A stretch of 24,152 bases of DNA from a virus, in the IMG/VR virus record IMGVR_UViG_3300030116_000184, positions 1 through 24,152 of that record, one strand, 5' to 3'. A program made the translations under genes and the position numbers. Positions 6,494 to 16,620 of this stretch are shown here, piece by piece. The notes below the pieces were generated by a model. It was not told the origin of the DNA. It was given only the letters and a program-made list of their open reading frames with translations, and made no database searches. Numbering within the stretch: position 1 is the first letter of the stretch; the number at the start of each line of letters is the position of its first letter.

Positions 6494-7234
6494 CTAATCA
6501 AACGCAGCACCGTCAGTGGTTCTTGCATTACCTAAACTAGTATTACCTGTATTATTTATAATCATGCCAGAACGAACATATTCAAATCTATTTACTAATA
6601 AACTTCTCATATTCTCTATACCTTCATTAAATTTTTCTTTAGCTACCATTGCATCTTGTGTATTTTCTCTAAACAAATAGGCATAAAACATTGCTCCATC
6701 TAAAATAACATGAGCAAATCTTTCAGGTATTGTTGGCACATCATCATGCAGTTCTAAATCTGTAGGAAACTGATAATATTCATATATTATAGTATATGCT
6801 TTGTCAGGAGCAGGTACTAAACCATATCTTAAATCAGGTGTTCTAAATACATATTGTGGTTTAGCTGATTTTGAATTATCATATTCATATTCTATATATT
6901 TATTAAGGTATTCTTCATAATCTATTACTTTTAATTTTCTTGTTTCAACATCAAGCGTTGTATCCTTTTTAATTCTAAACGTATCCATAGCTACTGTTTT
7001 TAACGTATCAGGAAAATCATAGCGCATTACGTTTGCAGTTACTGTTTCTTCTTCTTCTACGTGATTAAAAGGATAATTATATTGTTGTTGATTTATATCT
7101 CTGACTGAATGATTAACTGCATCTTTTGCTTGTGCATAAAAACCTGATGCAGTAGCAAAATTAGAAGAAGTTAATTCTACTTCATTTAATCTTCTGTTTA
7201 TTTGATTAACTAATCCTAAAAAATCATATGCCAT
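6494..7234 (-). CDS. Tail adaptor / head-tail connector protein (P22 gp4 / T7 gp11 type)
   Basis: 246 residues. It begins with helices (FLGLVNQINRRLNEVELTS, FYAQAKDAVNHSVRDINQ), continues with a beta-rich middle (RYDFPDTLKTVAMDTFRI, YTIIYEYYQFPTDL), and ends with helical FAHVILDGAMFYAYLFREN and KEKFNEGIENMRSLL. This helix-beta-helix layout and length match adaptor proteins that sit below the portal of short-tailed phages and hold the hub. It lies directly before the hub gene, the conserved order. One base separates its ATG from the previous stop. No promoter precedes it; the one at 6464-6491 lies after it. The assignment comes from recalled family features plus synteny, not from a search. Confidence 0.75.
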   Translation of the reverse strand: MAYDFLGLVNQINRRLNEVELTSSNFATASGFYAQAKDAVNHSVRDINQQQYNYPFNHVEEEETVTANVMRYDFPDTLKTVAMDTFRIKKDTTLDVETRKLKVIDYEEYLNKYIEYEYDNSKSAKPQYVFRTPDLRYGLVPAPDKAYTIIYEYYQFPTDLELHDDVPTIPERFAHVILDGAMFYAYLFRENTQDAMVAKEKFNEGIENMRSLLVNRFEYVRSGMIINNTGNTSLGNARTTDGAAFD

Positions 7235-7235
7235 T

Positions 7236-7565
7236 TTACTGCTCTTTTATTCTAAGTGTTATTGCTCGTTCTGCTGAAATTGCTCTTGTGTCTGTCATAT
7301 TACAAAATAATTTATATTGGGTATTTACAGTTCCTGCAGATAAAAATATAGTAGCAACTGTGCCATCTGAAGAAATATTTTGTGCTGTAGTTGTTAATCC
7401 ATTAACAGTATCTCCTGCATCAAAACGTGTTTTAACACCATTCTCATTAATAATAAACCAAATGACTTGAGAGATACTTGTACCCTGTCGTAAAAACCTA
7501 CTCCAATCTACACTGTAGTCTAATGTTTCATCTGGGTCTTTATTAGGAAACCTAAAAGACGACAT
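7236..7565 (-). CDS. Small fibre-associated structural protein
   Basis: 109 residues beginning MSSFRFPNKDPDETLDYSVD. The pattern 'F..KDPDE.LDY.(V/I)DWS..L..G..I....W.I', followed by a beta-sandwich-like remainder (TRFDAGDTVNGLTTTAQ, ATIFLSAGTVNTQYKLFC, ERAITLRIKEQ), is a family I recognise from many tailed phages, usually near fibre and adaptor genes and usually without experimental function. The final 'a.tlri.E' strand is typical. AAGGAG lies 6-7 nt before the ATG. Its position between the repeat protein and the adaptor suggests a minor tail or neck role. Confidence 0.8.
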   Translation of the reverse strand: MSSFRFPNKDPDETLDYSVDWSRFLRQGTSISQVIWFIINENGVKTRFDAGDTVNGLTTTAQNISSDGTVATIFLSAGTVNTQYKLFCNMTDTRAISAERAITLRIKEQ

Positions 7566-7579
7566 TTCTATCTCCTTAT

Positions 7580-8953
7580 TTATCTAATACGCACACGTCT
7601 TTGTGCGCTAAGTCTATCAAGTGTTGGTGGTATTCTAACAACTCTATTCTGTGAAAATATAAATACTCTTCTATCTTCTGGTCTTGCATCAAATCTTGAT
7701 GGTATATATACAACTCTATCTCTAGTAAATAAATCACGTAATGATAGATAATTTATTTTTATAGTATCATCACTAGAAGTAGAAGCATTTCCTGTAGCTG
7801 AAACAGATACTATTTTAACTACACGAGATTCAGTTGTTGCATTAGCATCGCCTGATATAGAACCATTAGCTAATACTCTTATAGAAGGTATTGCTATAAC
7901 TGATGCTGAACCTAATATACTGCCATCAACAGCATTTATATGTGCAGGTATGTTAGTTACTGCGCTTGAACCTGAACTAGTAATATCAGCATTAAAAACT
8001 TTAACTGCAGAACTAGAGGTAGCACTTTGACCTGCTATTGAACTACTAACATCTTTTAACTTATCTGCTACTGCTGATACAGTTGTTGCACCACTAACAG
8101 AAGCACTAGCAATCTCAATGTCAGATGTACTAACACTAGTAATAGATGCTGAACCAGATGCACTAGCTGAAGAATCAAATGTCTGATTAGCTGTACCTGA
8201 TGCAGTACCGTCACCTAAAATGCTTCCTGCACCTAAAGTACGTCTACCAGCTATACTAGATGCATTTGCTGACCCTGAAGCAGAAGCATCTGCCTCCTGT
8301 CCAACTAAACCTTCAGAAGTAGCACTACCTGTTACTGAAGCCTCACCTAACAACACTTTTACAGCAGTGCTTGATGCTGTGCTTTGACCTGTTACACTTG
8401 CTTCAGCTTTAAATCTTTGATTAGCAGAACCTGATGTAGTTGCCTCACCTGATACACTTGCTTCTGCAGGTCTTACTTTTATAGCAGTAGAACTTACACT
8501 ACCATCACCTGCTATACTTGCTTCTGCAGGTTGTACTCTTACAGCCGTAGAACTTACGCTACTATCACCTGATACGGACGCATCTGTTGCTATTCTTACA
8601 CCAGCAATAGCAGATACACTAGCTGAACCAGATATTGCAGACTCACCCGGTCTTAAACCTGTAGCTGTAGAAGATGATGAACCATTTGCAGATATTGAAG
8701 TTCTAGCATCTAATGTAGCAACTGCAGTGCTTGACTCTGTACCAACACCAGATACACTAGCACTTGCAGGTTGTATTCTTACAGCACTTGAGGATACTGC
8801 ACCTTGACCTGAAACTGATGCAGAAGAAGTTTGTATTCTTACAGCACTTGAGGATACTGCACTTGCGCCTGATACGGATGCATCTGCTGTTAATATTCTA
8901 CCTGCTTCAGCAGAAAACGGAGCAGTAGAAAAAGGAGCAATAGAGAACGTCAT
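7580..8953 (-). CDS. 457-aa protein of nineteen 20-residue repeats, probable structural/fibre protein
   Basis: Three parts are visible. Residues 1-22 are a short lead (MTFSIAPFSTAPFSAEAG...). Residues 23-400 are nineteen tandem repeats, eighteen of exactly 20 residues and one (the tenth) of 18, with consensus close to A-E-A-S-V-S-G-x-x-x-x-S-S-T-A-V-x-V-x-x. Residues 401-457 are basic and contain two related phrases, RVVYIPSRFDARPEDRRVFI and RVVRIPPTLDRLSAQRRVRI. A strict 20-residue Ser/Ala/Val/Gly period suggests a beta-solenoid or stacked beta structure, one coil per repeat; this is inference. The ATGA start overlaps the 76-aa gene upstream. Repeats of this general style occur in marine phage structural proteins. 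No enzyme motif is present. Confidence 0.85.
   Translation of the reverse strand: MTFSIAPFSTAPFSAEAGRILTADASVSGASAVSSSAVRIQTSSASVSGQGAVSSSAVRIQPASASVSGVGTESSTAVATLDARTSISANGSSSSTATGLRPGESAISGSASVSAIAGVRIATDASVSGDSSVSSTAVRVQPAEASIAGDGSVSSTAIKVRPAEASVSGEATTSGSANQRFKAEASVTGQSTASSTAVKVLLGEASVTGSATSEGLVGQEADASASGSANASSIAGRRTLGAGSILGDGTASGTANQTFDSSASASGSASITSVSTSDIEIASASVSGATTVSAVADKLKDVSSSIAGQSATSSSAVKVFNADITSSGSSAVTNIPAHINAVDGSILGSASVIAIPSIRVLANGSISGDANATTESRVVKIVSVSATGNASTSSDDTIKINYLSLRDLFTRDRVVYIPSRFDARPEDRRVFIFSQNRVVRIPPTLDRLSAQRRVRIR
7754..8887 (-). repeat. Nineteen tandem ~60-bp coding repeats
   Basis: These encode residues 23-400 of the 457-aa protein. Copies are diverged at the DNA level, except that units 1 and 2 (8887-8828 and 8827-8768) share long identical stretches, including a shared GTTTGTATTCTTACAG-like run and GCACTTGAGGATACTGCA-like sequence. 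This points to recent duplication at the 5' end of the gene. Unit 10 is six bases short and keeps frame. Confidence 0.85.
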
Positions 8954-9180
8954 ACTGCATCACCTATAGCTATACCATACCATGCACCTCGCCAGAAGAA
9001 TAATTTGTTTGTGCTAGTTACGTATGCCATGTCTCCTACACTTGCTGACGAAGGTATGTCTGAAGCATTAGTATAAGCAGTTACTACGTTACCTGTGAGT
9101 GAACCATCACTTCCTATAGTGTCCGTAGCAACAGCTTGACCAGCACTTGTTGCTATGTCTCTGTTTCTACTTTCTGACAT
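8950..9180 (-). CDS. 76-aa stand-alone copy of the adhesin N-terminal domain
   Basis: The whole protein parallels residues 1-75 of the 1091-aa adhesin just upstream. Shared positions follow M(S/T)ESRNRD(I/L)ATS, then G-x-AVA-x-D-x-I-x-x-DGSL, then YTN-x-SD-x-PS, GD, VT-x-x-N-x-L and a terminal WY-x-I-A. The larger protein continues into Ig-like and LamG domains, but this one ends after GIAIGDAV. It could be a free adaptor or cap that competes for or co-assembles at the same site, or the remnant of a second adhesin. AGAGGGG before the ATG is a strong ribosome site, and its stop overlaps the next start as ATGA, which argues that it is translated and not decayed. Confidence 0.85.
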   Translation of the reverse strand: MSESRNRDIATSAGQAVATDTIGSDGSLTGNVVTAYTNASDIPSSASVGDMAYVTSTNKLFFWRGAWYGIAIGDAV

Positions 9181-9184
9181 TGTA

Positions 9185-12100
9185 TTACCCCTCTAATTCT
9201 GCGGTAGGTACTGCAAATCTATTATTTGCTATTGGATGAGCAACCGTACCTTTTTGTATTCTCAAATTAGAGATGTAACCATAAAAAGGATGCGCATTAT
9301 CCCAACGTCCGCCTATAGGAAATTCTTGTAAATCATACCCAGTTGAACTATTGTAAGCACCATTTTGAATAAGTTTACCATCAATATAAGAACTAAATTT
9401 AAACTCTCCCCCAATGTATTCTTCTACATAATAAAGATGATGCCATGTTCTAGGATGTACAACATTTGTTATATTTACATCACCAGTACCCCCATAAGTA
9501 CTACCAGTTGCTTGGTGTCCTCTAATTCTTAGGTTATTAGACTGAAAAGCTATTTGAAATTGAGCAGATGAAGTATCCCTTGCACCGTAATTACTCGTTA
9601 TATGATTGTTACCACTTAAATTATCTTCGTCTATGTAAAACCACAATTCTACAGAAAAGTTATCCGTAGCACCATTATCTACATCACCCATTGTGTAATC
9701 TGAAGAAGAAGAACCTGTATGTGTTAATTTTATTATTTCATTTGAGTTATGTCCAAAATAAACTGACTTCATACCGGGTGCAGGTCCGAAATCATATACA
9801 GTAGGTGCTGAAGTAACAGATACTGTCCAATTCCCACTTACAGTTGTTGCAGATGCGGCATGACAAGCAAGTAAAAAAGTATTGCTATCTGCAGTTAATG
9901 TTTTTGCTACGGTATCTAGTGGTCTTCTTACATGTCCTAAACTTAACCTAAAATCTTCTAGGTAATAATTACCCCCACCAGAATAACCACCAGCAACACT
10001 ATAATCACCATCTGTATCAAAGTTCTGAGTACCTGAAATGCTTCCCGTATCTACTAAAGTACCATTTAAATATAGATATATTTTATCATAAACACGGGTA
10101 ATAGCAACATGTGTCCAATCGCTACTTAATATACTACTATTAGACGAACCCATAGTAGCACTATCAAACCCACTTATAGCACCACTTGTAGTACCCCCAT
10201 CAATATATATAAATACTCCATAACCCGGACGAAGTTGACACAAAAGATTGTCACTCAAACCACCCGGACCAAATTCAAAAAGAGATTTTTCACCTATAGT
10301 ACTATTTATAACACTTTCACACCAAAACCAAAATTCTATTGTGAAGTCTTGCTTGTTAAAATATAAACTTTGGTCAAAACTTTTAGCATCAAAATAAATA
10401 CCATGACCTGAACTAGCTCCTGTTTGTCTTATAGATGCAGAAGCATGTTTCTTTCTAGTTGTAGATGAATAAGTTGATGCACCTGATAACCTTACTCTAT
10501 GTCTTGAAGTCTTATCAAATATATTCATAGCAGAGGGGTTTATAAGAAGTTGTGTATTTGTTATTGCAGTTAAGGGTGAAGTAGTGGGTGTAAATGCACT
10601 TGTATATACAGCAGTTCCTTTTACAACTCTTGCATCTGCAACATACCCATGAAAAAATTGACTATTAACAGTTCTTCCACCTATACGAATTACATTATTA
10701 GTATTTGTTAAAGTAACAGTTGAGGTAGTTGATGAATCTTGTACTCCGTTTAAATATACTTTAAAACTATTACCATTTCTAACTAAAGCTAAATGATACC
10801 ACTGATTTTTATATAAAGTAGCAGAACCTGCTGAATAACTACTCCAACTACCACTAGTGCCAACTAAAAAATAAGTATTAGCATTTTCTGTACCTAAATA
10901 AAAACCTTGATTATCAGTAGTGTCTGCTGTTGTTATTATAGCCTGTGAACCAGAAAGACCACCATCAGTAGCATAGAACCAACATTCAGCAGTAAAATCA
11001 CCTGACCCCATGTTAAAATTACTACTACTTGCTGCACTTAAATAATCACTAGCACCGTCAAAAAACACAGAACTAGCATTGTTACTAGTTAAATCAAACA
11101 CTTCTGTATCAAAAGGATTGGTAGCTGTTTTTTCAACCGTACCATTGTATGTAAAAGTTTGATTTTGACCTGACTCATCTTTTAAATAAGGTAATGTACC
11201 TAATAATAACTTTGTATTTGTTACGGTAGCTACATCGTCATAAGGAACAGCAATAATTTGATTTGCTGCATTATAAGTATGAGAACCGTTAATAAATCGT
11301 ACTCCTCTTACATCACCTATAAAACCCTCTGTGCCATTACCTGTTGCTCCAATAAACGCATAAGTATTACCTGTAGAAATTGAATTACTGTAACTATTGT
11401 TATAAGCAATTTTTTCACCATTGTAAAATATTGCTATGTGTGTGCCTGTTCTTGAAACAGCTATATGATTCCATTTTCCTGTTTCAAATTTTTGTGAAGA
11501 TATTAATTTTCTACCTATTGCATTATCATACCAATAAGAAGTTATGTAACCACTATTGTCATTATCCCAAAGCAGAAGTCCAAAAGATTTTGCATTACTA
11601 TAATAAGGACCAAGCCCAAATCCACGACTATAATTATTAAATGTGTGGTCTTTATCGACTCTAATATATGCTTCATATGACCAATCACCTGTTCCACCTA
11701 TATCAAAATCAGCAGATGAACCAGTTCTAATATATGATTGTGCAGTATTAAAACGAGTACTATATCCCCCATCTTTATAGGGAGTAAAAGTAGAAGGATG
11801 AGCATCTCCATTAATGCTTACTGTATGACCACTGCTAGATGAATCAGTTATAGTACCATTAGTTCCGTTGTCACCATTTGCTTTCAGTAAAAATGTAGTT
11901 TTTTTACTATTTTCAGTTGTCGTAATAAATACTAAATTAAAAGTAGAAACAACATCTGTATTATTAACACTATCAGATGCCCTAAAAGTTAGTGTGCCAC
12001 TTGTTGTTGTAGCATTAGCTTGTGATTTAGGAGTTACTGTAAATACATTTGTATTGTTACCTGTACCCTGTGATACAGTAGCAAGACCATTGAAATTAGT

Positions 12101-12460
12101 GTCGGCTATGGCACTATATGTGATAGCAAAACCTTCAGGGTCAGTAGCAACTATTGTGATTACAGTTGTTGTGCTACCGTCTGTGGCTAAATTATAAGAT
12201 GAGGCAGGGGATGTAGTATATGTAGGCGATGTATTTACAAGTGCAATAACATACCAACCTGATGTACCTCTGATATACAAACCATTGTTTGCTGTAACAA
12301 ATCCTAAGTCACCTGCGTTAACACCCGTACTTGGTAAGTCAGATAGATTAGTATATGTGGTAACACCACTGATAGCAAGCGAACCGTCTGTTGCGATATT
12401 GTCAGCCGCAACTGCCGCACCTATACTTGTAGCTAAATCTCTGTTACGTGATTCTGTCAT
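9185..12460 (-). CDS. Giant adhesin with Ig-like and four LamG/concanavalin-like domains
   Basis: 1091 residues. Domains in order: residues 1-75, a conserved N-terminal module shared with the 76-aa gene; about 77-180, a cadherin/Ig-like segment (TTVITIVATDPEGFAITYSA); then four laminin-G/concanavalin-type jelly rolls at about 185-395, 415-630, 635-865 and 880-1085. Each jelly roll carries the fold's signature: 'DFT.E.WF(Y/W)' (260-270, 488-496, 705-713, 934-942), then W-x-H-(I/L/V)-A-x-x-R with Y-x-NG (330-348, 554-572, 782-800, with a looser version at 1006-1028), then a closing DVRGVRFI / DARVVKGT / DFRLSLG / NLRIQKGT strand. Such domains usually bind sugars or other surface ligands, so host-surface recognition is likely. 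ATGA overlaps the previous gene's stop. It is the largest gene in the window. Confidence 0.9.
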   Translation of the reverse strand: MTESRNRDLATSIGAAVAADNIATDGSLAISGVTTYTNLSDLPSTGVNAGDLGFVTANNGLYIRGTSGWYVIALVNTSPTYTTSPASSYNLATDGSTTTVITIVATDPEGFAITYSAIADTNFNGLATVSQGTGNNTNVFTVTPKSQANATTTSGTLTFRASDSVNNTDVVSTFNLVFITTTENSKKTTFLLKANGDNGTNGTITDSSSSGHTVSINGDAHPSTFTPYKDGGYSTRFNTAQSYIRTGSSADFDIGGTGDWSYEAYIRVDKDHTFNNYSRGFGLGPYYSNAKSFGLLLWDNDNSGYITSYWYDNAIGRKLISSQKFETGKWNHIAVSRTGTHIAIFYNGEKIAYNNSYSNSISTGNTYAFIGATGNGTEGFIGDVRGVRFINGSHTYNAANQIIAVPYDDVATVTNTKLLLGTLPYLKDESGQNQTFTYNGTVEKTATNPFDTEVFDLTSNNASSVFFDGASDYLSAASSSNFNMGSGDFTAECWFYATDGGLSGSQAIITTADTTDNQGFYLGTENANTYFLVGTSGSWSSYSAGSATLYKNQWYHLALVRNGNSFKVYLNGVQDSSTTSTVTLTNTNNVIRIGGRTVNSQFFHGYVADARVVKGTAVYTSAFTPTTSPLTAITNTQLLINPSAMNIFDKTSRHRVRLSGASTYSSTTRKKHASASIRQTGASSGHGIYFDAKSFDQSLYFNKQDFTIEFWFWCESVINSTIGEKSLFEFGPGGLSDNLLCQLRPGYGVFIYIDGGTTSGAISGFDSATMGSSNSSILSSDWTHVAITRVYDKIYLYLNGTLVDTGSISGTQNFDTDGDYSVAGGYSGGGNYYLEDFRLSLGHVRRPLDTVAKTLTADSNTFLLACHAASATTVSGNWTVSVTSAPTVYDFGPAPGMKSVYFGHNSNEIIKLTHTGSSSSDYTMGDVDNGATDNFSVELWFYIDEDNLSGNNHITSNYGARDTSSAQFQIAFQSNNLRIRGHQATGSTYGGTGDVNITNVVHPRTWHHLYYVEEYIGGEFKFSSYIDGKLIQNGAYNSSTGYDLQEFPIGGRWDNAHPFYGYISNLRIQKGTVAHPIANNRFAVPTAELEG

Positions 12461-12843
12461 CCAACTTTATCCCAAGATTTATTTGTTTCATTCCATTCAT
12501 ATAGTATTCCATCTTTATAGTTAGGACTATTTAAAATCTCATCGCTTATATCGCTAGGTACAGATACAGGAGCTTCCCATAAATATGTATTAGTATTAAG
12601 CACCCAACTGTCATATGGTTTAGGTTCATAAAAAGCATCTGCTTCAGCATCGTAGTGAAAACCTTTACCAGCATAATTGTAACGCAATGGGTTATTACCT
12701 AATTTATGCTTGCCACCATATGTATTATAAGAAGTTTGTATCCATGTTCCCGGATTAGGACATTCGTAACTATCAATAAAGTCTTGTTCAGCAACGATTA
12801 CTTCTTCAACAATTCCATTATTTACTCTTGCAAAATGTGCCAT
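12457..12843 (-). CDS. Conserved marine-phage virion-associated protein (MAHFA family)
   Basis: 128 residues starting MAHFARVNNGIVEEVIVAEQ. The layout 'MAHFA.v..G.V..VIVAE.dF', then PG-W-IQTSYNT-GG-H, then LR-NYAG-G-x-YD, DAF-PKP-SW-LN, LWEAP and a final Y-W-x-W repeat is one I recognise as widespread in cyanophages and other marine phages next to fibre genes, with no established function. Aromatic content is high, especially Trp and Tyr, as in ligand-binding or fibre-tip proteins. It sits between the glycine-rich protein and the LamG adhesin and overlaps the latter by ATGA, so it may be an accessory to one of them. Confidence 0.85.
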   Translation of the reverse strand: MAHFARVNNGIVEEVIVAEQDFIDSYECPNPGTWIQTSYNTYGGKHKLGNNPLRYNYAGKGFHYDAEADAFYEPKPYDSWVLNTNTYLWEAPVSVPSDISDEILNSPNYKDGILYEWNETNKSWDKVG

Positions 12844-12851
12844 ATTATTAT

Positions 12852-13859
12852 CTATACCTGATATCTAACTATTAATATTCCTGAACCACCTGCACCTGAA
12901 GGTCCTGAAGCGTTACCACCATGTGCGCCACCACCACCGCCACTTCCTGTATTAGCAGTTCCAGCAGTTGCAGGTTCAGCGTTATTATAACTACCGCCCA
13001 TACCACCGCCACCTGTGCCACCTTGACCACCGTTAGCACCAGTGCCACCGTTACCAACATTACTAAAAGCACCAGAACTTCCTCCACCGCCACCTGCTCT
13101 TGTAACTGTAGTTCCTGTTATATTACTAGACTGTCCATTTCCCCCATTACCTGATGTCCCACTACCGCCATTTGTACCAGCAGCACCAGCACCGCCACCG
13201 CCACCGCCACCAAAGCTACCTGTACCATTACCTGCGGTAGAACCACCATCATAACCTTGTCCTGATGTTGCTGAACCGCCACCACTGCTACCACTATTAA
13301 AATTACCACCACCTCCAGAACCACCATCGCCACCACTGTTACCACCTGCAGATGAAGCTCCTTCTCCTCCAGCGTCAGCAGTTAATCCATTAAAAGTAGT
13401 ATTATTTCCAGCATTACCTCTTGTTGATGTTGTTACAGCCGCACCCCCTGCTCCTATAACGACAGCATAAGTTCCCGGACTCATAGTCATACTTCCTTCA
13501 GCACTTGCACCACCACCCGAAGTTTGACCAGATACATTAGTTCTATAACCACCTGCACCACCGCCACCAGAATAATAAAATCCACCGCCTGAACCACCAC
13601 CAGCAATCATTAAATATTCAACGGAAATAGTAGAATTAACAACAAAATTTGCCGAACTAGTAAAAGTATGAACTTTATAATTAGTAGAACCAACAGTTAA
13701 ATCTGCTTCAGTTCCACCTGTTGCAGGGGGAGCATAACCTACCATTTCTGGTTCAGTAAGCGAAGCGTATAAGTTATGGTCTTTTGGACTATAATAACCC
13801 TCTGCTGTATCTGCAGATGGTTGATTTAATATTCCTAGTTTGCCACCGTTAAAAGGCAT
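12852..13859 (-). CDS. Glycine-rich adhesin (candidate polyglycine-II sandwich fibre tip)
   Basis: 335 residues. Residues 1-80 (MPFNGGKLGILNQPSADTAE..., DLTVGSTNYKVHTFTSS) form an attachment-like module. From about residue 81 (ISVEYLMIAGGGSGG) to the end it is dominated by Gly with Ser, Ala and Asn, including long GGGG runs, and closes with GILIVRYQV. The opening 'Vey LmIaGGGsGG' and 'Y.V.iGaGG' are hallmarks of the glycine-rich domain used by many phage adhesins. In T4-like S16 gp38 such a region forms a stacked polyglycine-II sandwich that contacts the receptor. It overlaps the upstream stop as TAATG, with GAGGAG just before. The receptor role is inference from the family. Confidence 0.85.
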   Translation of the reverse strand: MPFNGGKLGILNQPSADTAEGYYSPKDHNLYASLTEPEMVGYAPPATGGTEADLTVGSTNYKVHTFTSSANFVVNSTISVEYLMIAGGGSGGGFYYSGGGGAGGYRTNVSGQTSGGGASAEGSMTMSPGTYAVVIGAGGAAVTTSTRGNAGNNTTFNGLTADAGGEGASSAGGNSGGDGGSGGGGNFNSGSSGGGSATSGQGYDGGSTAGNGTGSFGGGGGGGAGAAGTNGGSGTSGNGGNGQSSNITGTTVTRAGGGGGSSGAFSNVGNGGTGANGGQGGTGGGGMGGSYNNAEPATAGTANTGSGGGGGAHGGNASGPSGAGGSGILIVRYQV

Positions 13860-14218
13860 TAACTAATCTCCTCATAAGAACAGATAACATCTAACTTACT
13901 CGCAGTTCCTGCTGTTACTCTCAGTGTATCGCCTTCTTCTAAATAAATAGGTATTGACTTATCTATAGGAGTAAATGAAGAATTTTGTGCAATACTTACT
14001 GTGTCTATAAGTTTATAGGCTGTTGAACTTCTGTATAAATCAACAGTAAGTGTAACTGCAGATGAATGGTCATTTGATACTATAATCGTATTTACTTTAA
14101 ATACTTTATTACTAGACGCTGAGTTTGCAACTAGGTTTGTTGCGCTAGTACCTACAGCGGCAAGAACAGCAGTCTTTCCTGTAATGGTACTTACATTTAC
14201 TATATTAGGTGCTGACAT
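13859..14218 (-). CDS. Conserved small virion protein (SAPNIVNVSTITGKT family)
   Basis: 119 residues starting MSAPNIVNVSTITGKTAVLA and ending with a beta-rich segment (KSIPIYLEEGDTLRVTAG, LDVICSYEEIS). The pattern 'PNIVNV.tITGKT', 'KVFK(V/I)NT(I/L)IVSN', 'V.LY', 'YLEEGD(T/S)(L/I)RV' and 'CSYEEIS' is one I recognise from many marine phages as a conserved structural protein of unknown function. The fold is probably a small beta sandwich. AAGGAAGG lies 5-10 nt before the ATG, a strong ribosome site suggesting a high copy number. Coupled by TAATG to the glycine-rich adhesin. Confidence 0.85.
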   Translation of the reverse strand: MSAPNIVNVSTITGKTAVLAAVGTSATNLVANSASSNKVFKVNTIIVSNDHSSAVTLTVDLYRSSTAYKLIDTVSIAQNSSFTPIDKSIPIYLEEGDTLRVTAGTASKLDVICSYEEIS

Positions 14219-14233: not shown

Positions 14234-15613
14234 CTATCCACCAAATACGATAGCCATTGCTATTGCTTTACCTGTGGTTACTCCACCGCCATTACTAAAT
14301 GCGGCAACTTGTAATTTATCATTTGCTGCCGCACCAGATTGTAAAACCACAGATGAACCATTGGTGGCTGTATAGTCATCTGTATCTACTAATAGTACTC
14401 CATTTAAATATACAAATATATTTCCTGCTGTATAACTCATTGTTGCAGAGTTAGCATCACTACCACTAAAAGTTGTTTGGTTAGCCGTAGCTGTATATTC
14501 AAATGTATTTATTGTTATCGGTGTTCCACCACCACCGCTACTACTAATCGTAATAGTTTTAGTTGCACCTGTTCCTGATGCTGTTACATCACTACCTACA
14601 AAGTTTAATGTGGTTGCAGTAGTAGATAATGAGCTACCTTCTTCTTGAACAGTTACACCCCCACCACCTGAACCTGTGCTTGCGGCAGTAAGTCTTCCTT
14701 GTGCATCTACAGTAATACTCGCATTAGTATAGCTACCTGCACTAACAGTAGTATTAGCTAACTTATCAGCATTAACAGCATCATCAGCTATCATACCTGT
14801 AGCAACTGTGCCTGTATCTCCTGTACCTATAAGTGTACCAGAAGTTGTGGGAAATGTCAAGAGTGCTTCTGAGTGATTTATTTTATTAGAACCAATAACA
14901 ATTGCATGATTACCCATGTAAGCATGGCTTGAACACTGATAATATAATATGCTTGGAGTATCTTCAGTTACCGCTATTTGTAAATAGGTGCTTGTTGTTG
15001 TAACACCTGTTGTGTATGCTGTAGTCTTATCTGCATCTAAATAAAGTCTAAATGGATGACTTGACATATCGCTTGAGCTAAGAGTAAATCTGTAATGATA
15101 CTCTGAATTAGACGTTACGTTGTCAACACCATATAGTGTTAAAGCAGGTGACTCTATTCCATTTATAGCATAGCCTTGACTGCTTCCATCTCCGTAATAT
15201 GGATGTGCAGATGTTTTTGTTACTACAGTCACACTAAATTCTACAGGATTAGAAGAACTTCCATAACTGCTAGATAGCAAAAATGCATCTACATATTCAC
15301 TTGCTTCTTTATATACTGCTTTTTCTGCAGGTTGTGTTACAAAAATATCTCGTGTGCCAGAAGTCCAGCTAACGGCACTATCAGAATTACTGGACTGTAA
15401 AATAGTTGTACGGGCGAGAGTAGTTCCTGAAGAAGTATATGTTCCTATACCTACTTCAAAATCAGTCCCGTCCGTACAACAGTAATAAGTTGTATTTCCA
15501 TTTCCTATGGATGCAAATGATTCAAAACCAGTAACCGCACCTGCAAGAGTATATGTACCCGTACCAGTTGTAGTAGTGGTTTCTTTCACTCTGTCAGCGA
15601 CTACTAAAGCCAT
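14234..15613 (-). CDS. Tail fibre/spike protein with a cupredoxin-like segment
   Basis: 459 residues. Residues 1-100 (MALVVADRVKETTTTTGTGT..., TTYYCCTDGTDFEVGIGTYT, DIFVTQPAEKAVY) form an N-terminal module that recurs in marine phage fibres. Residues about 125-242 look like a small beta sandwich with EYHYRFTLSS, SSHPFRLYLD (His186) and ILYYQCSSHAYMGNHAIVIG (Cys227, His230, Met233). This order resembles the type-1 copper site of cupredoxins, although the Met spacing differs. Residues about 255-320 (TGMIADDAVNADKLANTTV, SITVDAQGRLTAAS) are a common fibre repeat. Residues about 370-440 (TFEYTATANQTTFSG, FVYLNGVLLVDTDDYTA) are another common fibre module. The fibre call is solid; metal binding is speculative. 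Confidence 0.87.
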   Translation of the reverse strand: MALVVADRVKETTTTTGTGTYTLAGAVTGFESFASIGNGNTTYYCCTDGTDFEVGIGTYTSSGTTLARTTILQSSNSDSAVSWTSGTRDIFVTQPAEKAVYKEASEYVDAFLLSSSYGSSSNPVEFSVTVVTKTSAHPYYGDGSSQGYAINGIESPALTLYGVDNVTSNSEYHYRFTLSSSDMSSHPFRLYLDADKTTAYTTGVTTTSTYLQIAVTEDTPSILYYQCSSHAYMGNHAIVIGSNKINHSEALLTFPTTSGTLIGTGDTGTVATGMIADDAVNADKLANTTVSAGSYTNASITVDAQGRLTAASTGSGGGGVTVQEEGSSLSTTATTLNFVGSDVTASGTGATKTITISSSGGGGTPITINTFEYTATANQTTFSGSDANSATMSYTAGNIFVYLNGVLLVDTDDYTATNGSSVVLQSGAAANDKLQVAAFSNGGGVTTGKAIAMAIVFGG

Positions 15614-16095: not shown

Positions 16096-16620
16096 TTAAG
16101 CAAGAGTGTCTCTGTCAACTTCATCTGCTCCTAGTTCACCAAGACTATCAATGTTCATCAACACAGCAAAAATACGAATTTTTCCTGCAGTTGGTGCAGT
16201 TGATGTTGCTTGAAGTTCTAGGTCAATGGTATCTTCTGCCGTGCAAATAACAGGGTTAGCCGCTGTTGATGCAGGGGTTAGATATCCAATTCCAGAAGAT
16301 AAGTTTGTTGCATTGTCGTCAATGTCAACATTAGAAACATACCCAGATACATCTGTACCACCAATCTGACTTCCACTTCCAGTAAAGCCAAGGTTTACAG
16401 TATTTCCATCTGCCCCTGTTTGAACAGCTTCAACCATTTCAGCACCTGCTGTCAACACCATAGTATTGGCTGGTACAGAAATTGCTTCAACAATATCACC
16501 TGCTGAAAGGCTATTAATTGCAGAGTTGGAAAAATCCAGAGTAGTTTCAACCATGTAAGGCTGACGACCACGTGCGCCTACGCCACGTACAGAGGTTTTA
16601 AGAGTACTAACTGTAGCCAT
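16096..16620 (-). CDS. Probable capsid decoration or minor head protein
   Basis: 174 residues with no transmembrane segment or enzyme motif. The basic N-terminus (MATVSTLKTSVRGVGARGRQ) is followed by a beta-rich body (ETTLDFSNSAI, IVEAISVPANTMVLTAGAEM, NTVNLGFTGS, EDTIDLELQAT, GKIRIFAVLMNID). The clause 'GD(I/V)vea(I/V).vpantmVL.ag.ev..a' occurs in capsid-proximal proteins of marine phages. Its place 14 bases after the capsid gene, inside the same promoter-terminator bracket, is the classic position for a head decoration or stabilising protein made in large amounts. AAGGGGGGAT upstream is a strong ribosome site. A head fibre is an alternative. Confidence 0.8.
   Translation of the reverse strand: MATVSTLKTSVRGVGARGRQPYMVETTLDFSNSAINSLSAGDIVEAISVPANTMVLTAGAEMVEAVQTGADGNTVNLGFTGSGSQIGGTDVSGYVSNVDIDDNATNLSSGIGYLTPASTAANPVICTAEDTIDLELQATSTAPTAGKIRIFAVLMNIDSLGELGADEVDRDTLA

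What the first reader, a model, noticed from the sequence alone, without database searches (positions are those of the whole stretch)
9185..12460. Adhesin with four LamG-type domains in one protein
Four distinct concanavalin-like jelly rolls follow an Ig-like segment. They are well diverged from each other, so they may bind different glycans or form a multivalent array. This is large for a podovirus adhesin of this type and implies a complex host surface.
Basis: partly seen in the sequence, partly recalled or inferred. Interest (0 to 1): 0.5.

Follow-up and report, generated by a model that had tools for sequence, protein, structure and literature searches.

The report
Phage adhesin with swappable lectin-like domains
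A short-tailed ocean virus carries a long tail protein whose last four blocks look like sugar-binding domains, and comparison with related viruses indicates that single blocks are swapped whole between viruses, which may be how they keep up with changing host surfaces.

Summary
ORF 12460..9185(-) encodes 1091 aa with four Laminin_G_3 domains, each above Pfam's cut-off alone, behind a small N-terminal domain and a probable Ig/PKD-like sandwich. The phage is HMO-2011-type. The gene lies in a variable cassette whose end genes resemble fibre I and the fibre-tail adaptor of podophage GP4; many relatives lack the cassette. It is most likely a tail-fibre adhesin; glycan binding is inferred from the fold.

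Four domains is not exceptional. Related stalk genes carry 3 (57), 4 (11) or 0 (50) LamG domains in 118 closed ORFs; other phage proteins have more.

LamG 2 here is 92% identical in DNA to that of another HMO-2011-type phage (dS 0.07), while LamG 1, 3 and 4 of that pair are saturated. The nearest relative keeps domains 1, 3 and 4 but has another domain 2. Of 15 array pairs sharing 200 bp or more at 85% or better, 12 are mosaics, and 0 of 16 breakpoints lie deep in a domain (8.3 expected). All this rests on metagenome assemblies.

The parts
9185..12460 (-). adhesin ORF, 1091 aa: N-domain + Ig/PKD-like stalk + four LamG domains
12224..12460 (-). N-terminal domain (aa 1-79), 91-94% identical to the three orthologues while the LamG domains are 28-72%; presumed virion-attachment part (inference)
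   Evidence: paralogue in the next ORF
11903..12223 (-). probable Ig/PKD-like stalk domain (aa 80-186)
11225..11902 (-). LamG 1 (aa 187-412)
   Evidence: Pfam E 3.6e-13; 69% to a LamG of L194 and of L202
10538..11224 (-). LamG 2 (aa 413-641)
   Evidence: Pfam E 1.2e-22; model pLDDT 89
10580..11042 (-). exchanged segment within LamG 2: shared with L186, not with the nearest relative L194
   Evidence: two-breakpoint scan: 173 of 188 informative sites inside favour L186, 152 of 922 outside; 2lnLR 412, highest of 100 permutations 17.6; blastn 91.7% over 481 columns
9881..10537 (-). LamG 3 (aa 642-860)
   Evidence: Pfam E 1.2e-11
9188..9880 (-). LamG 4 (aa 861-1091)
   Evidence: Pfam E 1.3e-14
8950..9180 (-). 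N76: stand-alone 76-aa copy of the N-domain, 54% identical, without stalk or head
   Evidence: kept in L194, L195 and the L186 group at 91-93%, dN/dS 0.12-0.17 against L186 and L194
15640..16041 (-). fibre I homologue at one end of the cassette
   Evidence: Pfam Gp80 E 3.5e-37; PDB 8jou_a E 2.6e-8
14234..15613 (-). tail-fibre gene with conserved N-terminal domain
   Evidence: phrog_30742 tail fiber E 7.4e-31; its first 109 aa are 63-99% identical in the 80 loci kept
13859..14218 (-). 119-aa cassette ORF, unknown
   Evidence: no family; relatives upstream of the stalk gene in L186, L197, L199
12852..13859 (-). glycine-rich fibre-type protein
   Evidence: Pfam Gly_rich_2 E 9.9e-10
12457..12843 (-). 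128-aa ORF directly upstream of the adhesin
   Evidence: phrog_7759 E 8.4e-27; directly before the stalk gene in L186, L197, L199
7580..8953 (-). Ala/Ser-repeat protein; a counterpart (by position and repeat character, by eye) precedes the adaptor gene in the five other cassettes inspected
7236..7565 (-). fibre-tail adaptor homologue at the other end of the cassette
   Evidence: Pfam Gp77 E 1.7e-14; PDB 8jou_D E 0.011
6494..7234 (-). tail adaptor gene, fixed flank of the cassette
   Evidence: Pfam SU10_adaptor E 6.8e-20
16096..16620 (-). gene following the major capsid protein (HMO-2011 gp46-like), other flank of the cassette
   Evidence: no family

Best explanation
The protein is a tail-fibre-type adhesin of an HMO-2011-type marine podovirus. 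A conserved N-terminal domain and a probable Ig/PKD-like stalk hold it on the tail, probably through the fibre I and fibre-tail adaptor proteins encoded at the two ends of the same cassette. Four LamG jelly rolls form the distal part and most likely bind surface glycans of the host. The array evolves by whole-domain exchange: single LamG units are replaced by homologous recombination between phages, with crossovers at the conserved edges of the domain (in LamG 2, near the motifs GSGDFTAECW and RVVKGTAVYT), while the stalk is kept. Shown here: the LamG domains, the cassette context, the mosaic pattern. Inferred: place in the virion, glycan binding, the recombination mechanism, benefit to the phage.
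For: Four LamG folds; L2's best structural match is domain 4 of the arabinanase AbnA (19-20% identity, Z 19.5-19.9; one entry, 5hon, is titled as a complex with a compound whose name is cut off after 'arabinot'). Fibre context; of 63 rows (56 distinct contigs) with both flanks visible (in two rows, CRP-1 and ctYwJ313, the coat gene stands in for the gp46-like flank), 40 have the flanks 53-87 bp apart; all 18 rows (12 contigs) with a gap of 1.5 kb or more carry the adaptor homologue, and none of the other 45 shows it there or, for the two stand-in rows, anywhere in the locus. One stalk, other heads: 50 of 118 stalk ORFs have no LamG match; among these 50, 11 match FG-GAP, 8 a glycine-rich domain and 4 a lactonase-type propeller, and L199 has an F5/8 type C head. 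Exchange of L2. L194 is 97-99% identical in TerL, portal, MCP, gp45L and gp44L but 39% in the L2 core against 66-69% in L1, L3, L4. General exchange: 12 of 15 pairs mosaic; 16 breakpoints at mean 10.6 aa from a domain edge, random 32.1, p 1e-4. Exchange between phage types: L202 (9.4 kb of a 12.9-kb contig) matches none of the other 21 window genes tested but has 75% DNA identity over 1137 columns of L1-L2; its reductase is nearest to a 171-kb Rhizobium phage.
Against: No virion proteomics, binding data or host. All mosaic arrays come from metagenome assemblies; chimeric assembly at conserved motifs is not excluded for each case, and the window's own array was seen in one contig. LamG domains elsewhere also mediate protein contacts (general knowledge). 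Isolate genomes examined (3 Vellamovirus, 5 ACG-2014f) showed no domain swap, though they are 99-100% identical over the compared stretch and their LamG proteins are of another kind. Some PHROG families matched by the LamG part and by the fibre I homologue are named head proteins. The full-length model is of low confidence.
Confidence: 0.72

Rival explanations
1. The protein is a capsid (head-fibre) decoration that sticks to glycans or particles, not a tail fibre.
For: The cassette directly follows the capsid and gp46-like genes; PHROG names phrog_701, 8510, 18802 and 240 are in the class head and packaging.
Against: Both ends of the cassette match the GP4 fibre I and fibre-tail adaptor, and the adaptor homologue is present in all 18 rows with a long cassette.
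Confidence: 0.12
2. The mosaic arrays are assembly chimeras joined at conserved LamG motifs.
For: All are metagenome contigs; a 30-bp stretch at the right-hand breakpoint is identical in three phages.
Against: Identical arrays recur in separate assemblies (L186 group in four, L240/L242, L225/L226, L257/L260 and others). The window's L2 is 92%, not about 100%, identical to its nearest copy, with 20 amino-acid changes in 155, and off-position relatives up to 89% exist.
Confidence: 0.12
3. LamG 2 differs from that of the nearest relative through fast mutation or a diversity-generating retroelement rather than exchange.
For: In the exchanged copy non-synonymous change is as frequent per site as synonymous (26 to 5.8 changes, dN/dS ratio 1.25).
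Against: A donor-type copy at dS 0.07 exists in another phage while L1, L3 and L4 of that pair are saturated; no reverse transcriptase match (PF00078) in the window record or in four related records, two of them 54-56 kb. These records may be fragments.
Confidence: 0.04
4. The LamG array is a glycan-degrading enzyme.
For: ConA-like folds include glycanases; Pfam gives a weaker 3keto-disac_hyd match.
Against: No ExDx(1-2)E motif of GH16 type (motif recalled); Laminin_G_3 is the best family for each domain.
Confidence: 0.04

Closest known systems
Laminin_G_3 (Pfam PF13385, Concanavalin A-like lectin/glucanases superfamily)
   Same: all four domains are members by sequence and L2 by predicted structure
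   Different: tandem unit of about 220 aa on a phage stalk, exchanged singly; ligand unknown
Podophage GP4 fibre module (Pfam Gp80 fibre I, Gp77 fibre-tail adaptor, PDB 8jou)
   Same: the cassette's two end genes match these families
   Different: here a long LamG adhesin, glycine-rich and repeat proteins lie between them; whether GP4 has counterparts was not examined
HMO-2011-type phages (Puniceispirillum phage HMO-2011, Roseobacter phages CRP-1, CRP-345)
   Same: terminase 83-86%, MCP 69-80%, same order of head genes
   Different: HMO-2011 has gp46 and gp45 side by side and many small fibre genes further downstream; CRP-345 has a 1.8-kb cassette with the adaptor homologue
Phage DSL-LC04 concanavalin A-like protein (OR003939)
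   Same: tandem LamG array, top-ranked annotated relative, 27% identity over 83%
   Different: six LamG matches in a 1368-aa frame and no match to the stalk profile
Sharing of host-recognition modules between distantly related phages (Alteromonas phage A5, PMC10579305; title and start of the abstract seen in a search listing)
   Same: recognition genes cross phage families
   Different: there tail fibre with chaperone; here single domains inside an array as well

Membership tests
Laminin_G_3 domain | score above the curated Pfam cut-off for each domain | tested here: met
   45.4 to 81.1 bits against 27.6
Laminin_G_3 domain | ConA-like jelly-roll fold | tested here: met
   L2 alone: model pLDDT 89, Z 19.9 to AbnA, 19.1 to PAPP-A; L1 and L4 only in the weak full model; L3 modelled poorly, so not shown by structure
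Laminin_G_3 domain | carbohydrate binding | not testable with these tools
   fold only
Ig-like/PKD stalk | sequence match to an Ig-like or PKD family | tested here: inconclusive
   none significant for the window protein; PKD E 0.0005-0.003 in one of nine relatives, below cut-off in the relative's full-protein scan; antibody chains E 1.8e-4
HMO-2011-type phage | homologous terminase and capsid genes in the same order | tested here: met
HMO-2011-type phage | DNA polymerase with a partial DnaJ domain (PMC9038755, passages read) | not tested
   not looked for; the fragment's recognised genes are packaging and structural
GP4-type fibre module | fibre I and fibre-tail adaptor homologues | tested here: met
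   Pfam Gp80 E 3.5e-37, Gp77 E 1.7e-14
Diversity-generating retroelement target | reverse transcriptase gene in the genome | tested here: inconclusive
   no PF00078 match in the window record or in 4 related records, but each may be a fragment

The most novel reading that the evidence does not exclude
Marine phages of different types share one adhesin chassis: a conserved stalk with a LamG array of fixed size, three or four units, in which each unit is a freely exchangeable cassette recombined at conserved DNA edges. Host range would then be set by a combination of lectin units, comparable to modular exchange in antibody or pilin systems, without a dedicated mutator.
Probability: 0.35. Interest if true: 0.7.

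Novelty: new variant of a known kind. Interest (0 to 1): 0.5.

Why it matters
[quoted passage not shown] If single LamG units are exchanged as modules, host recognition in these phages can be read and tested unit by unit: each LamG can be made alone and matched with a glycan, and natural mosaic pairs such as L241/L250, whose genes are 98-99% alike in nearly all parts but one unit, are ready-made comparisons.

Tried and rejected
Looked for a reverse transcriptase (none in five records) and a GH16-type motif (none). Looked for a recombination handle: the most repeated 30-mer of the gene in 25 LamG loci is GDFTAECWFY, near the left breakpoint, with only 8 hits at 25 of 30 or better; suggestive, not proof. 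Sought domain swaps in isolate cyanophages: none in 13 pairs, but these are near-identical and of another protein kind. Tested whether the four domains are recent duplicates of each other: no; each groups with a domain of another phage, at starred support, rather than with its neighbours (the bootstrap had not settled). A first breakpoint test used pairs chosen by domain identity, which favours breakpoints between domains; it was replaced by a choice on shared DNA alone (segments under 40 aa merged), in which two pairs repeat near-identical relatives (L219/L220, L251/L254), leaving 14 breakpoints without these repeats. Clostridial-toxin rows reflect a shared lectin fold; no evidence here points to a toxin and none was fetched. 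The N+Ig stalk of the window gave no match at E 1e-5 in 50,697 phage records with a single sequence; N76 has a weak match to phrog_1325, E 1.9e-4, and one of nine stalk members to phrog_3995, E 0.0048. Paper searches on LamG in phages listed no title or abstract on LamG unit exchange; the listings were capped and the library lacks most subscription journals. Searches for the GP4 tail listed 8 of 124 and 6 of 8 papers; among those listed is a GP4 head structure but no tail structure, so the GP4 names come from Pfam and the 8jou link from sequence.

The count '3, 4 or 0 LamG' rests on the best 80 hits of one capped search (78 loci) and on an HMM trained here; four of the eleven four-LamG rows are copies of one array, and some three-LamG genes have long tails that could hide a weak unit. 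The cassette counts mix loci found by the capsid gene with loci found by cassette genes, so they are no frequency; four of its rows (gaps 270-281 bp) rest on a partial match to gp45L.
Full report
What is there. The window is a 24,152-base virus record. Its terminase is 86% identical to that of Puniceispirillum phage HMO-2011 and its major capsid protein 80% to Roseobacter phage CRP-345, so it is an HMO-2011-type podovirus, with its recognised genes on the minus strand. The gene at 12460..9185 encodes 1091 aa. Pfam finds Laminin_G_3 with four stretches (E 5.5e-55), and each of the four pieces scanned alone passes the cut-off. A model of LamG 2 is confident (pLDDT 89.0, pTM 0.88), and its nearest solved folds are AbnA domain 4, PAPP-A, pentraxins and related lectin-like jelly rolls. 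The model of the whole protein is weak, but its top Foldseek match is the tandem LamG array of neurexin.

Where it sits. Relatives were compared at the place between the gene after the capsid (gp46-like) and the tail adaptor gene (gp45-like). In 40 of 63 rows with both flanks visible these are 53-87 bp apart (in one of them, CRP-1, the capsid gene stands in for gp46); in 5 rows the gap is 270-550 bp; in 18 rows (12 contigs) it is 1.5-9.5 kb (63 rows from 56 distinct contigs, partly found through cassette genes, so no frequency). In the window the gap is 8.9 kb. All 18 long rows carry the same small gene next to the adaptor, and it was not found in the other 45. This small gene matches Pfam Gp77, the fibre-tail adaptor of podophage GP4, and the 133-aa gene at the other end of the window's cassette matches Gp80, fibre I of the same phage; both have their best PDB match in entry 8jou, the adaptor only weakly (E 0.011). 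The cassette is thus most likely a fibre module. In the window it holds, in order, fibre I, a tail fibre, a 119-aa ORF, a glycine-rich protein, a 128-aa ORF, the adhesin, N76, a repeat protein and the adaptor. The five other cassettes inspected have other contents: a small protein and a repeat protein only (L024, L063), long fibre-type genes (L027, L035), or among others a SPRY/DUF7483 protein with one LamG (L110).

One stalk, many heads. The first 186 aa are 76-97% identical between four orthologues, while the LamG domains fall to 28-72%. A search with an alignment of the stalk kept 78 loci. In 118 distinct closed ORFs with this stalk, 57 carry three LamG domains, 11 carry four (four of these are copies of one array) and 50 none. 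The 50 others were scanned with Pfam: 11 have FG-GAP repeats, 8 a glycine-rich domain, 4 a lactonase-type propeller; the first of the 50 had no match. L199 has an F5/8 type C domain. The window's four-domain form is shared by its orthologues and is slightly larger than the usual three; it is not unusual among phages.

Exchange of LamG 2. The nearest relative, L194, is 99% identical in TerL, 98% in MCP and 99% in gp45L. Its adhesin is 94% in the N-domain, 84% in the stalk, 66-69% in LamG 1, 3 and 4, but 39% in the core of LamG 2. The core of LamG 2 of the window instead matches a more distant HMO-2011-type phage, L186 (gp45L 89%): 91.7% DNA identity over 481 columns, dS 0.072 against 0.50 in gp45L of the same pair and more than 1 in LamG 1, 3 and 4. 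A scan of 1110 informative sites places the segment at window 10580-11042; 173 of 188 sites inside favour L186 and 152 of 922 outside; the likelihood ratio is 412 against at most 17.6 in 100 permutations. A tree of 39 domains gives WIN-2 with L186-2 at 100/91, and WIN-1, WIN-3 and WIN-4 with L194 at 97/82, 100/100 and 99/90; LamG 3 groups, less firmly (91/97, not starred), with the first LamG of L195, another position (bootstrap not settled). Within the exchanged core non-synonymous changes are frequent (26 against 5.8 synonymous), relatively more than in gp45L (Fisher p 5.9e-5) but not above neutrality (p 0.82); the two comparisons are at different depths, so this is a hint only.

Exchange between phage types. 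Contig L202 (9.4 kb held of 12.9 kb) matches none of the other 21 window genes tested, yet carries LamG 1 and 2 at 75% DNA identity over 1137 columns. Its ribonucleotide reductase is nearest to Rhizobium phage RHph_I1_18, a 171-kb phage. Its array seems to lack LamG 3: the end of its second unit reads like the LamG 3-4 junction (by eye). LamG stalk genes also lie on contigs up to 177 kb.

A general pattern. Among 67 distinct three- or four-LamG arrays, the window's included, 15 pairs share at least 200 bp at 85% or more. Three are alike throughout, 12 are mosaics. Their 16 breakpoints lie on average 10.6 aa from a LamG edge (random 32.1, p 1e-4), none deep inside a domain (8.3 expected, 0 of 10,000 as low); two of the 16 repeat near-identical relatives. 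The clearest case is L241 against L250, with 98-99% flanks and a middle unit at 47%. In an earlier list, 23 same-size pairs had one domain at 70% or more, and all 23 had another at 50% or less; that list left out arrays identical in their last 200 aa (83 genes became 63 groups).

Reading and doubt. The most economical account is a tail-fibre adhesin whose LamG units are replaced one at a time by homologous recombination at their conserved edges. Not shown are the place in the virion, the ligands, the mechanism of exchange and the benefit. The main doubt is that all arrays are metagenomic. Against chimeras speak identical arrays in separate assemblies, moderate rather than perfect identity to the donor, and off-position relatives. 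Isolates I could examine were uninformative. Papers: PMC9038755 and PMC6918029 were read in passages; others were seen only in search listings. The searches listed nothing on LamG unit exchange.

Noticed in passing
window 8950-9180 (-): N76, a stand-alone copy of the adhesin's N-domain, is kept at 91-93% in relatives and looks under purifying selection; perhaps a cap or filler for fibre attachment sites.
   Followed up: partly
window 16096-16620 (-): The gp46-like gene is 93% identical to that of L026 but about 40-44% to that of L194, although L194 is 98% in the capsid protein next to it: a second exchanged gene at the edge of the cassette.
   Followed up: no
window 7580-8953 (-): Ala/Ser-repeat protein with dS only 0.04 to L194, lower than its neighbours N76, adaptor homologue and gp45L (0.08-0.33), suggesting its own recent exchange.
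   Followed up: no
window 12457-14218 (-): The 119-aa, glycine-rich and 128-aa genes have no match in L194 but have relatives in L186.
   Followed up: no
L202:788-1474: Fusion-like end of a LamG unit that seems to have lost LamG 3, as if by unequal recombination between neighbouring units (by eye).
   Followed up: partly
L225, L230, L273 and others: Larger contigs carry several stalk genes in a row with different heads, a repertoire of fibres.
   Followed up: no
L110:5147-8686: Another cassette holds an 1179-aa protein with one LamG, a SPRY domain and two DUF7483 stretches.
   Followed up: no
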